Source: Gottfriedia acidiceleris
Lineage (GTDB): Bacteria; Bacillota; Bacilli; Bacillales; Bacillaceae_G
Length of the DNA stretch: 64,000 nt
Direction of reading: 5' to 3'
Assembly: GCF_002128425.1 (NCBI RefSeq)
Contig: NZ_NESS01000003.1
Span: 124,001-188,000 of the forward strand
Shown here: piece after piece, positions 21,262 through 37,109 of the stretch
Layout: each line of letters starts with the position of its first letter
Numbering within the stretch: position 1 is the first letter of the stretch
Notes under the pieces: generated by a model
The model's database searches: none
What the model was told of the DNA's origin: nothing
Seen by the model: the letters and a program-made list of their open reading frames with translations, nothing else
Program-made: the position numbers and the translations under genes

Positions 21262-21430
21262 ATATAGTCGATTTTAACAATCTTTTTATAGAAAAATGGC
21301 AGATTTCTCTCAACTTTCAACAGATTAAACTAATATTACAGCCATTTTGCTAGTTTGCCATTTGAAAATATCTTTTTTTATCAAATTTTACATCATAATA
21401 CTATAACCGGTATGGGTAATTATTTCTCTT

Positions 21431-21580
21431 ATTTGCTATTCTTGAGGTTTTATTTGCGATTCCTTAATTTTATTTGCAGTTCTGACTTTTTCATTTGCGA
21501 TTTCAGAATTTTATTTGCTATTCGTACTTTATTTGCAACTTATCCTTTTTTAATTGCCACACATAAACTCCTCATTTGCG
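21431..21580. repeat. Degenerate 20-21-bp tandem array (ATTTGCGATTCT)
   Basis: ATTTGC-type cores begin at 21431, 21452, 21472, 21493, 21513, 21531, 21552 and 21574, i.e. eight copies spaced mostly 20-21 bp. The unit is roughly ATTTGCGATTCTTGATTTTT. The array occupies the interval where B. subtilis has yjbI and yjbJ between yjbK and yjbH. No gene is seen in 21262-21863. Confidence 0.7.
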
Positions 21581-30588: not shown

Positions 30589-30792
30589 ATGGCAGCTTAC
30601 ATAACTGATCTATTGATTGTTGCAGTGTTAGTAATCGGAATTACTGCACTTAATGGTGTGTTTACAAACGCGATCGGCGAAAAAATATTTGGTAGAAGTA
30701 AAAAAAGTCAATTTGTTGATATGTCTGACCGAATGTCAGCAAACTTCAAACAGGTTGGTGGACAAGGCAAGTTCCGTAAAAAAACTTATTAA
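30589..30792 (+). CDS. Small membrane-anchored protein, unknown
   Basis: 67 residues: an N-terminal hydrophobic helix (about 5-27, TDLLIVAVLVIGITALNG) and a basic, polar C-terminal tail (FGRSKKSQFVDMSDRMSANFK...RKKTY) that would lie in the cytosol. AGGAGG precedes the ATG at good spacing and a terminator follows, so it is a real, single-gene unit. I do not recognise the family. A GTAACGCTTACA sequence just upstream resembles half of a cre box. Confidence 0.7.
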   Translation: MAAYITDLLIVAVLVIGITALNGVFTNAIGEKIFGRSKKSQFVDMSDRMSANFKQVGGQGKFRKKTY

Positions 30793-30805
30793 TAGCAGTA
30801 AAAAC

Positions 30806-30833
30806 AAAAAGGGCAAAGGCCCTTTCTTTTTTT
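30806..30833 (+). terminator. Terminator after the 30589 gene
   Basis: AAAGGGC/GCCCTTT with a 3-4-base loop followed by CTTTTTTT. Confidence 0.85.
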
Positions 30834-31057
30834 GCCTTGATAAGGTTTAGTGTATAACGAATGTAGAAGTGATTACGGACACTAGTTCGTCCGCCAGTAC
30901 ATTACTTTGGAATATTAGATTCAGGGGCTTTGAATTAAAATTTGGTTATCATTGTACATTCTAGATTCAATTTCTTCTAAGCTTGTCCTACCGTTCTTAC
31001 ACCTAGCCTTATCTACATTTCTAATCATAAATCCTCCACCTTAATTTTCCCTTAACT

Positions 31058-31600
31058 TGCATGAATCCTTTATGAGTAACCTAATTCTTCTTTTTGCTTT
31101 TTTACATTCTCATGAACCCTTTATGAGTAACTAAATTTCGTCTTTTAGTTTTTATACTTACTCATGAACACCTCATGAGTAACCAGCTCTCTTCTTTTTG
31201 GTTTTATACTTACTCATGAACACCTCATGAGTAACCAGTTTTCTTCTTTTTACTTTTTTACTTGCTCATGAACCCTTTATGAGTTACTAAATTTCATCTT
31301 TTAGTTTTTATACCTACTCATGAACACCTCATGAGTAACTAAATTTCATCTTTTAGTTTTTATACTTACTCATGAACCCTTTATGAGTTACTAAATTTCA
31401 TCTTTTGGTTTTTATACTTACTCATGGACACCTCATGAGTAACCAGCTCACGTCTTTTAGCTTTTTTACTTACTCATAAACACCTTATGAGTAACCAGTT
31501 CTCTTCTTTTTGCTTTTTACTTCCTCATGAATACCTTATGGGTGACCTATTTTCAGCTTCTTGCCTTTTTATTACCCATTTCTTATGAGCTAGCAAATTC
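31058..31600. repeat. 52-bp tandem-repeat array with palindromic cores
   Basis: Ten copies plus a decayed eleventh. Cores begin at 31058, 31109, 31161, 31213, 31265, 31317, 31369, 31421, 31473, 31524 and 31575: the seven central steps are all exactly 52 bp, the outer ones 51. Each core is CTCATGAACACCTCATGAG or CTCATGAACCCTTTATGAG, then GTAAC, a variable 12-14 bases, and a T-rich tail before the next core. It lies between the convergent 30589 gene and the opp operon. No coding frame, no cas genes and no unique spacers. Confidence 0.93.
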
Positions 31601-31610
31601 TTCAACTCCT

Positions 31611-31651
31611 TGACTCAAAAAAAAAATCCTAGTGATAAGCTCACTAGGATT
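31611..31651 (-). terminator. Terminator of the opp operon
   Basis: ATCCTAGTGA/TCACTAGGAT (31627-31650) followed on the minus strand by ten T. It directly abuts the repeat array. Confidence 0.9.
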
Positions 31652-31657
31652 AATTTC

Positions 31658-32596
31658 TTATTTATACATTTGTTGATAATTTTTGAATTCTGCTTCAGAG
31701 CAAAGTACGAAATGTCCAGGACGAACTTCGCGTAATTGTGGTTGTTCATTTGAATAATCGTGTTGTTTTGGATCATAAACGATACGTTTACGATTGCGCT
31801 CATAAACAGGATCTGGAAGCGGAATTGCTGATAATAATGATTTTGTGTAAGGATGCATTGGGTAATCATATAATTCATTACTATCTGCAAGCTCAACAAT
31901 TTTACCGTGGTACATTACACCGATACGATCACTAATGTACTTAACCATTGATAAATCATGGGCGATAAATAAATATGTTAAACCTTTTTCCTTTTGAAGC
32001 TTTCTCATTAAGTTTACAACCTGAGCTTGAATTGACACGTCAAGAGCTGAGATTGGCTCATCGGCGATAATAAAGTCTGGTTGTACAGCAAGTGCTCTTG
32101 CAATACCGATACGTTGACGTTGTCCACCTGAGAATTCATGTGGGAAACGGTTAGCGTGTTCTTTATTTAAACCTACTGTTTCAAGTAAGTCATAAACCAT
32201 TTTCATTCGCTCTTCTCTGTTACGAGCTAAGCCATGAATATCAATACCTTCTGCAATGATATCTGCAACTTTCATACGCGGGTTTAATGAAGCGTATGGA
32301 TCTTGGAAAATCATTTGCATACGACGGTTAAACTGCTTTAACTCTTTACGACTTTTCTTACCATGTACATCTACACCATCGAAAATTACTTGTCCATCAG
32401 TCGCATCGTATAATCGAATGATGGCACGTCCAGTTGTAGATTTACCAGAACCTGACTCACCTACTAAACCGAAAGTTTCTCCACGGAAAATGTCAAATGT
32501 GACATCATCGATTGCTTTAACAGTTGTTTTACCTGTATTAAAGTATTGTTTTAAATTTTTAACTTCAACTAATTTTTCTGCAGCTTTATTTGACAT
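31658..32596 (-). CDS. oppF: Oligopeptide ABC transporter ATPase OppF
   Basis: 312 residues. ABC ATPase with Walker A GESGSGKST, signature FSGGQRQRIGIARAL, Walker B FIIADEPISALD and the C-terminal oligopeptide/dipeptide extension (YTKSLLSAIPLPDP...), followed by a tail with one Cys (HFVLCSEAEF) as in peptide transporter ATPases. It pairs with OppD to drive peptide import. Its start overlaps the end of oppD by 11 bp, so it is translationally coupled. Last gene of oppBCDF. Confidence 0.92.
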   Translation of the reverse strand: MSNKAAEKLVEVKNLKQYFNTGKTTVKAIDDVTFDIFRGETFGLVGESGSGKSTTGRAIIRLYDATDGQVIFDGVDVHGKKSRKELKQFNRRMQMIFQDPYASLNPRMKVADIIAEGIDIHGLARNREERMKMVYDLLETVGLNKEHANRFPHEFSGGQRQRIGIARALAVQPDFIIADEPISALDVSIQAQVVNLMRKLQKEKGLTYLFIAHDLSMVKYISDRIGVMYHGKIVELADSNELYDYPMHPYTKSLLSAIPLPDPVYERNRKRIVYDPKQHDYSNEQPQLREVRPGHFVLCSEAEFKNYQQMYK

Positions 32597-36839: not shown

Positions 36840-36863
36840 CTATAGAAAGTATATATAAGCTAT

Positions 36864-37109
36864 GATGAAGAGTAGTACACAGATTTAGCATGTGAAGAGA
36901 GCTTGTGGATGGTGAAAACAAGTCATGCTCCCTGTCGAATGGACTTCTGAGCTTCGAACCGAACATTTAGTATAAGTAGGCTTCGACGTAACTCAAACGA
37001 TAGATGAGGGCATGATTTCATGCATGAGTGATTCCTTATTTGGAATAACTAGAGTGGTACCGCGGTTTAATCGTCTCTATGTAATAGAGAGATTATGCCG
37101 CTTTTTTTA
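36864..37109 (+). promoter_or_regulatory. tRNA-Trp T-box riboswitch
   Basis: Leader of about 245 nt. The T-box sequence AGAGTGGTACCGCGG is at 37051-37065 and the specifier codon TGG (Trp) is in CGAATGGACTTCTGAGC (TGG at 36940-36942). The terminator stem is GCGG...CCGC with an inner TCTCTA/TAGAGA stem and seven T (37062-37107). Uncharged tRNA-Trp binds specifier and T-box and favours read-through into trpS. Confidence 0.93.

What the first reader, a model, noticed from the sequence alone, without database searches (positions are those of the whole stretch)
31058..31600. 52-bp tandem array in which each unit appears to keep two hairpins by compensatory changes
Ten-plus units, seven steps of exactly 52 bp (about five helical turns). 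Core hairpin: some units read CTCATGAACACCTCATGAG (7-bp arms), others CTCATGAACCCTTTATGAG, where pairing survives on the plus strand through G-U and A-U pairs. The variable segment then seems to pair in different ways by unit: CTAAA...TTTAG, CTAAA...TTTGG (U-G), CCA...TGG, AGT...ACT, AGCT...AGCT, AGT...GCT (U-G), each followed by a T-rich tail. That looks like selection on plus-strand RNA structure, a string of mini-terminator-like units, not simple slippage. The alternative is a phased DNA-binding array. It sits between convergent genes, so it is not a promoter region. I know no named element like this.
Basis: partly seen in the sequence, partly recalled or inferred. Interest (0 to 1): 0.8.

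Follow-up and report, generated by a model that had tools for sequence, protein, structure and literature searches.

The report
Phased palindrome arrays between bacterial genes
A bacterial chromosome carries about 25 scattered arrays of a 52-base palindromic repeat whose spacing stays nearly fixed while most of its sequence changes, which looks more like a regularly spaced landing strip for an unknown DNA-binding protein than like an RNA.

Summary
The array is real: ten units at 31058-31542, seven of nine steps exactly 52 bp. It belongs to a family of 26 array loci found in this genome (120 core matches, reversed control 0). Related arrays occur in 9 of 12 congeners and patchily in other Bacillaceae. 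The RNA reading is mostly not supported: the second hairpin fails a half-swap control, and own-genome core changes are not compensatory; G-U and A-C departures are equal at pairs 1-5 (69:70); terminators flank the array and no promoter-like site was found. Between arrays, the outer arms of the dyad do change on both sides (90 cells against 41.9 shuffled), though the measures least sensitive to relatedness are weak (198/500 and 19/500). Length changes per substitution are about ten times rarer than in flanking DNA. Best explanation: a helically phased (about five turns) array of dyad sites for a dimeric DNA-binding protein, which I did not find. The main rival is a selfish or neutral REP-like satellite; at this locus only 3 of 12 congeners keep a clear array. 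Two defining REP features were tested and not met.

The parts
31058..31542 (+). Ten-unit tandem array of a 52-bp unit; core starts 31058, 31109, 31161, 31213, 31265, 31317, 31369, 31421, 31473, 31524
31161..31179 (+). Representative core dyad CTCATGA-ACACC-TCATGAG; with outer arms TTACTCATGA/TCATGAGTAA it spans 31158-31182
   Evidence: one search lists the same dyad (10 pairs, loop 5) in the next unit at 31210-31234
31543..31600 (+). Decayed right edge of the array
   Evidence: read by eye
30808..30825 (+). Terminator-like site after the left ORF, before the array
31625..31651 (-). Terminator-like site of the oppF-like gene, between it and the array
30589..30792 (+). Small ORF (67 aa), left neighbour, no Pfam or NCBIfam match at E 0.001
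31658..32596 (-). OppF-like ABC transporter ATPase, right neighbour, 3' end faces the array (best NCBIfam matches are OppF models, below their curated cut-offs)

Best explanation
The array is a DNA element: a head-to-tail series of dyad-symmetric sites (inner half-sites CTCAT...ATGAG with 9 bp between, and outer arms that differ between lineages but tend to stay inverted copies of each other) repeated every 52 bp, close to five turns of B-DNA at 10.4 bp per turn, so that all sites face one side of the helix. The most likely reader is a dimeric DNA-binding protein that binds cooperatively along the array. About 25 such arrays are scattered through the chromosome in non-coding DNA, usually beside a gene 3' end and often beyond its terminator, which would suit a chromosome-organising or anchoring role. 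SHOWN: array, dispersal, dyad, symmetric difference of arms between arrays, tight period, placement, patchy distribution. INFERRED: dimeric protein, cooperativity, helical-face phasing. SPECULATIVE: chromosome organisation. The protein was not identified.
For: Period: 96 of 118 steps are exactly 52 in this genome; in scans that used the single core with no spacing imposed, 15 of 15 (Lederbergia) and 29 of 30 (N. mesonae) gaps under 320 bp are multiples of 52, although spacers differ at 0.64 per site among 24 non-Gottfriedia arrays. Length: of steps of 45-60 bp, 16 of 112 (own) and 32 of 435 (named loci) are not 52, with about 6.7 substitutions between adjacent units, i.e. roughly 47 and 90 substitutions per length change, against 4.0 in flanking DNA of the oppF locus over all pairs (5.6 for the window's own comparisons). 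Dyad: 0/20 complementary in 56 of 62 arrays (26.0 shuffled), -2/22 in 59 of 62 (31.2 shuffled); 90 two-sided cells against 41.9, 0/500, slid controls at most 44; these two pairs rank first of all column pairs at least 4 apart by corrected mutual information. CTCAT-N9-ATGAG in 474 of 485 (arrays were located by this spacing, so partly by design). No strand signature at pairs 1-5: 69 against 70. In 16 own-genome representatives positions -4, -2, 0, 20, 22 do not vary while -3, -1, 21, 23 do, often as mismatches, unlike a continuous stem. Flanking terminators, no promoter-like site. Convergent gaps enriched (18 of 49 resolved clusters against 37 of 252 other gaps), divergent depleted (7 of 49 against 84 of 252).
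Against: No protein found. Presence is patchy: 10 of 13 genus genomes, 14 of 121 of the N. mesonae family with any exact core, several of them single sites, and in a 398-genome class sample only our own plus three single sites. At the oppF locus only G012, G006 and G003 of 12 congeners keep a clear array; G002, G005, G009, G010 and G011 have 2-3 mostly degenerate units and G001, G004, G007, G008 none. Two of the five covariation measures, the ones the tool calls least sensitive to relatedness, are weak: pairs with two-sided change 7 against 6.3 (198/500), further pair types 25 against 21.4 (19/500). In one genome (AFS001701) arrays of A-T and C-G arm types coexist (6 and 6 of 13 fetched), which a single protein need not produce. 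Substitutions between neighbouring units are not independent mutations, and tandem amplification of a founder could itself keep the period. The arrays' direction (right end faces a gene 3' end in 42 of 58 clusters, left in 28 of 56, Fisher p 0.02) is unexplained.
Confidence: 0.44

Rival explanations
1. A REP/BIME-like or satellite-like repeat with no host function: palindromic units spread to intergenic places where they do little harm, are amplified and homogenised by recombination, and decay.
For: Depleted from divergent gaps, edge units degenerate, decay or absence at the oppF locus in 9 of 12 congeners, patchy distribution, weak relatedness-robust covariation measures, six contig ends lie within about 50 bp of array units.
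Against: Between arrays of this genome the core differs at 0.07 and the spacer at 0.40 per site (core partly by search design), length changes are strongly depleted, arms differ symmetrically, and 17 of 26 own loci share clusters with arrays at the same place in other genomes.
Confidence: 0.31
2. Plus-strand RNA hairpin strings (mini-terminators or 3' UTR structures).
For: Two-sided changes in the dyad between arrays; position 14 is nearly always a pyrimidine opposite G; terminator-like hits by my own detector in forward direction in 48 of 102 arrays against 3 of 102 in reverse; left-facing gene ends lack a terminator before the array a little more often (25 of 46) than right-facing ones (24 of 65).
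Against: Second hairpin fails; 69:70 symmetry at pairs 1-5 and an A-C excess at pair 7/13; hardly any wobble states at the covarying pairs; no promoter-like site and flanking terminators; tail not T-rich in B. marasmi; left neighbour strand 28 to 28; no Rfam match inside 31058-31600 at E up to 1. No RNA-seq was available.
Confidence: 0.12
3. Sites for a site-specific recombinase: inverted arms of about 11 bp around a short asymmetric centre resemble tyrosine-recombinase sites (loxP, dif; recalled), and recombination between tandem sites would keep unit length exact.
For: Anatomy only: arms of about 10-12 bp, constant inner part, asymmetric centre.
Against: Tyrosine recombinases (PF00589, E up to 1e-12, 15 genomes): array-rich G006 has 3 and G010 has 4 matches and, judged by size and score only, they share just two Xer-type ones, which the array-free G001, G004 and G008 also have. 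Y1 transposases have no match in array-rich G002, G005 and G006. Serine recombinases were not searched.
Confidence: 0.06
4. DNA hairpin or cruciform recognised by structure.
For: Symmetric arm differences, including two arm types among arrays of one genome.
Against: In this genome pairs -1/21 and -3/23 are often mismatched; the 9-bp separation is nearly fixed (474 of 485, partly by design), which a loop would not need.
Confidence: 0.07

Closest known systems
REP elements / BIMEs (GTAG and CGTC families)
   Same: Short palindromes, many intergenic copies, some clustered, preference for unidirectional and convergent gaps (PMC3733652, passages seen)
   Different: No GTAG/CGTC tag, head-to-tail arrays with a 52-bp period, no consistent Y1 transposase
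STAR, MIRU and bcr1 repeats (recalled; bcr1 also named in listings and passages)
   Same: Dispersed repeats in intergenic DNA; STAR and MIRU form tandem arrays
   Different: bcr1 as recalled is a longer single element of the B. cereus group; STAR and MIRU as recalled lack this dyad and exact period; sequences were not compared here
CRISPR arrays
   Same: Palindromic repeat and constant-length spacer
   Different: Neighbouring spacers are near-copies of each other (0.16-0.17 differences per site), about 25 loci per genome; cas genes were not searched
Clustered sites of chromosome-organising proteins (parS, Noc, RacA sites; recalled)
   Same: Dispersed dyad sites along the chromosome
   Different: Different sequence and strict tandem 52-bp arrays; no consistent link to the parS region or to one orientation in the two genomes looked at

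Membership tests
REP/BIME | Short palindrome in many intergenic copies | tested here: met
REP/BIME | GTAG or CGTC type tag at one end | tested here: not met
   In 62 array consensus units GTAG occurs in 1, its complement in 4, CGTC in 1, its complement in 2
REP/BIME | Associated RAYT/Y1 transposase | tested here: not met
   PF01797: no match in array-rich G002, G005, G006; G010 has an intact one, array-free G004 has five matches, the rest are short or interrupted
Intrinsic terminator array | Stem followed by a T tract, kept across genomes and in line with the upstream gene | tested here: not met
   T tract not kept in the B. marasmi consensus; left neighbour strand 28 to 28; one of ten window units scores; but 48 of 102 arrays score forward with my detector
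Structured RNA family | Covariation of paired positions | tested here: inconclusive
   Three of five measures exceed all 500 shuffles, two do not (198/500 and 19/500); none within this genome
Structured RNA family | Wobble tolerance on one strand | tested here: not met
   69 against 70 at pairs 1-5; 6/14 G-T 457, 7/13 A-C 143
Structured RNA family | Match to a described Rfam family | tested here: not met
CRISPR | Unrelated spacers within an array | tested here: not met
Phased protein-binding array | Dyad sites at whole-turn spacing with length constraint | tested here: met
Phased protein-binding array | A protein that binds it | not testable with these tools
   Needs gel shift or pull-down

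The most novel reading that the evidence does not exclude
An undescribed chromosomal system of bacteria: some 25 dispersed, centromere-like landing arrays per genome, built of five-turn phased dyads and read by an unknown dimeric protein whose outer half-site preference has shifted from lineage to lineage while the inner half-site and the 52-bp rule stayed fixed; patchily shared among Bacillaceae.
Probability: 0.3. Interest if true: 0.8.

Novelty: new variant of a known kind. Interest (0 to 1): 0.56.

Why it matters
If the arrays are bound by a protein, several Bacillaceae lineages have an unrecognised chromosome-scale system with up to a hundred or more sites per genome, and the five-turn phasing makes it directly testable. 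If not, it is a clean case of a bacterial satellite whose unit length is held much more tightly than its sequence. Either way six contig ends of this draft genome fall at arrays, so they disturb short-read assemblies.

Tried and rejected
Second hairpin and compensation inside the window and this genome; read-through terminator role; known RNA family; Y1 transposase partner; dedicated tyrosine recombinase (15 genomes, G003 and G007 not included); phage, plasmid or viral carriage (exact two-unit pattern in IMG/VR; blastn of the window array with BLAST's low-complexity filter); origin-linked or replichore-polar placement (two genomes, no consistent pattern); a neighbouring gene shared across genera (one NERD-like gene recurs, a few other links were judged paralogues or not followed); protein-coding repeat (52 is not a multiple of three). 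Papers: seven searches listed nothing on such an array; passages of PMC2267715 and PMC3733652 were seen, all other papers only as listings. Most subscription papers are not in that library, so absence from print is not established.

Limits: one search listed 100 of its 120 places; the 20 unlisted ones (two mismatches) were not visited, so more degenerate arrays or solitary sites may exist. Loci L013 and L015 (ends of contigs C2 and C10) fall in one cluster and may be halves of one array. Gene calls in my scripts were simple ORFs: at least 90 aa for arrays, at least 70 aa for the control gaps, so the comparison is rough; our own locus is counted there as -A- because its left ORF is only 67 aa. 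Dropped rows: the array caller kept loci with at least 2 units (4 or fewer mismatches) and one unit with at most 1; L078 gave none; 3 of 65 clusters had no consensus; 16 of 65 clusters lacked a neighbour at a contig end; steps outside 45-60 bp were left out of the length count (6 of 118 own steps). Half's output was cut; one search repeats its counts in full.

Full report
THE OBSERVATION. The window holds a ten-unit array with core starts at 31058, 31109, 31161, 31213, 31265, 31317, 31369, 31421, 31473 and 31524; seven of nine steps are exactly 52 bp and two are 51. TRF reports period 52, 9.4 copies, 81% matches. On the left lies a 67-aa + strand ORF (30589-30792), on the right an oppF-like gene on the - strand (31658-32596). 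Terminator-like sites lie between each and the array (30808-30825 and 31625-31651), and no promoter-like site was found in 30700-31750 against a mean of 3.0 (sd 2.2) in shuffles.

IT IS A GENOME-WIDE FAMILY. The core pattern (up to 2 mismatches) has 120 matches in this 4.77-Mb genome and none for the reversed control; near-palindromic units can match on both strands. The 100 listed places lead to 26 array loci of 2 to 15 units, 142 units with full flanks, with 96 of 118 steps at exactly 52 bp; the 20 unlisted places were not visited, and two loci at contig ends may be one array. Among 12 congeners 9 have 18 or more matches and 3 have none; 27 genomes outside the genus have 0 or 1. With the exact pattern, 10 of 13 genus genomes including our own match, 14 of 121 genomes of the N. 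mesonae family, some with single sites only, and 4 of 398 class genomes, namely our own and three with one site each. Contig lengths shared between (148,841 and 395,027 bases) suggest that congeners G006 and G012 are G. luciferensis CH01 and Bacillus sp. FJAT-25509, so the window's genus is probably Gottfriedia (inference). No match to the two-unit pattern in IMG/VR and none to the window array in plasmids or phages.

ANATOMY. In core numbering (C of CTCATGA = 1) the inner half-sites CTCAT (1-5) and ATGAG (15-19) are 9 bp apart in 474 of 485 cases (partly by design). Outside them the arms continue the dyad but differ by lineage, for example TTACTC/GAGTAA, TTCCTC/GAGGAA, TGTCCTC/GAGGACA, TGAACTC/GAGTTCA, GTTCTC/GAGAAC. 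On 62 arrays, one per cluster, the 13-pair dyad has 90 two-sided changed cells against 41.9 (sd 4.8) in shuffles, covariation score 0.301 against 0.132 and 86.7% of cells paired against 75.3%, each 0 of 500 as high; slid controls reach at most 44 cells. But pairs with a two-sided change are 7 against 6.3 (198/500) and further pair types 25 against 21.4 (19/500); these are the measures least inflated by relatedness, so the number of independent events is small. Complementary at 0/20 in 56 of 62 and at -2/22 in 59 of 62, against 26.0 and 31.2 shuffled. By corrected mutual information on 71 non-redundant consensuses these two are the top pairs among column pairs at least four apart.

Within this genome a unit's own core halves pair no better than swapped halves (window n=7, z -0.29; own genome n=88, z +2.0, slightly worse), whereas across genomes they pair far better (300 of 452 units, z -13.9, 0 of 60 swaps). 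Within arrays there is a weak excess at 0/20 and -1/21 (z about 2.5) and none at the inner pairs. The second hairpin has no support: z -1.8 in the window (n=7), +0.36 in the genome (n=88), +1.0 in 300 units. If a plus-strand RNA stem were selected, U-G departures should outnumber C-A departures; summed over pairs 1-5 in 659 units they are 69 and 70. At the covarying pairs (columns 8/32, 9/31, 10/30) only one wobble cell is seen. In 16 own-genome representatives positions -4, -2, 0, 20 and 22 are fixed while -3, -1, 21 and 23 vary, often as mismatches, which is not how a continuous stem behaves. On the other side: pair 6/14 is mostly G-T (457 of 659), though pair 7/13 departs as A-C (143) rather than G-T (20), and forward terminator-like sites occur in 48 of 102 arrays against 3 of 102 in reverse by my detector; the T tract is not kept in B. 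marasmi.

LENGTH IS HELD. Neighbouring units differ by about 6.7 substitutions (measured where two successive steps are 52), yet only 16 of 112 own and 32 of 435 named steps of 45-60 bp are not 52: about 47 and 90 substitutions per length change. Flanking intergenic DNA of the oppF locus has 4.0 substitutions per indel over all pairs (1772 and 439); the window's own 14 comparisons give 5.6 overall and run from about 1 to 14. Neighbouring units are not independent, so this is a comparison of ratios, not a rate. Scans that used only the single core give 15 of 15 (Lederbergia) and 29 of 30 (N. mesonae) gaps that are multiples of 52. Fifty-two bp is five turns at 10.4 bp per turn (established B-DNA value).

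PLACEMENT AND HISTORY. Of 65 clusters, 49 have both neighbours: 18 convergent, 24 codirectional (17 -A-, 7 +A+), 7 divergent; 252 other gaps of at least 100 bp in the same loci are 37, 131 and 84 (Fisher p 0.0009 for convergent, 0.007 for divergent). The array's right end faces a gene 3' end in 42 of 58 clusters, its left end in 28 of 56 (Fisher p 0.02). Of 111 gene 3' ends facing arrays 62 have an intrinsic terminator before the array; control ends 127 of 248. Seventeen of 26 own loci, in 16 clusters, share at least one neighbouring protein of 60% identity or more with an array locus of another genome. At the oppF locus 3 of 12 congeners (G012, G006, G003) keep a clear array, 5 (G002, G005, G009, G010, G011) have two or three mostly degenerate units, and 4 (G001, G004, G007, G008) have none; the stretch beyond oppF is not the same in G004 and was only 205 bases in G007. 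So single arrays are not kept everywhere.

PARTNERS SOUGHT. Y1 transposases have no match in three array-rich congeners (G002, G005, G006). G006 and G010 have only 3 and 4 tyrosine recombinases at E 1e-12 and, judged by size and score, share just two Xer-type ones, which the three array-free congeners also have. No neighbouring gene explains the arrays.

VERDICT. The best reading is a phased array of dyad DNA sites for a dimeric protein. Symmetric difference of both half-sites between lineages, without compensation within this genome, is what a shift in one protein's specificity would give; the coexistence of A-T and C-G arm types among 13 fetched arrays of AFS001701 is a point against and leaves a DNA-structure reading open. 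Patchiness, decay at the oppF locus and the weak relatedness-robust measures leave a selfish or neutral satellite as the chief rival. The protein and any effect on the cell are unknown.

Noticed in passing
G000 contigs C2 end, C4 start, C10 both ends, C16 end, C45 start (L013, L014, L015, L017, L021, L032): Six contig ends of this draft genome lie within about 50 bp of array units, so arrays break the assembly and are probably undercounted.
   Followed up: partly
L050, right of its main array (B. marasmi): A neighbouring array has an altered core CTCATAGAACCTCTCTATGAG with a longer inner stem, yet again a 52-bp step (one step counted by eye; the core also).
   Followed up: partly
L019, L059, L118, L102, L116: A NERD-like gene (name recalled, not tested) has its 3' end next to arrays in Gottfriedia, Bacillus sp. 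MM2020_4 and Cytobacillus citreus (43-46% identity between genera).
   Followed up: partly
30589-30792 +: Small 67-aa ORF kept beside this locus in congeners, in diverged form also in the array-free G001; no Pfam or NCBIfam match.
   Followed up: partly
G433 (N. mesonae FJAT-13985): Arrays lie unevenly: no match between 0 and 1.9 Mb, most on the other side of the parS cluster near 2.6 Mb.
   Followed up: partly
36853-37081 +: T-box leader before trpS (Rfam RF00230), ordinary.
   Followed up: no
L160 (G007): At the oppF locus no array is seen in the 205 bases left before the contig end; unrelated sequence stands there.
   Followed up: no
21429-21530: Another short tandem repeat, period 41, 2.5 copies.
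   Followed up: no
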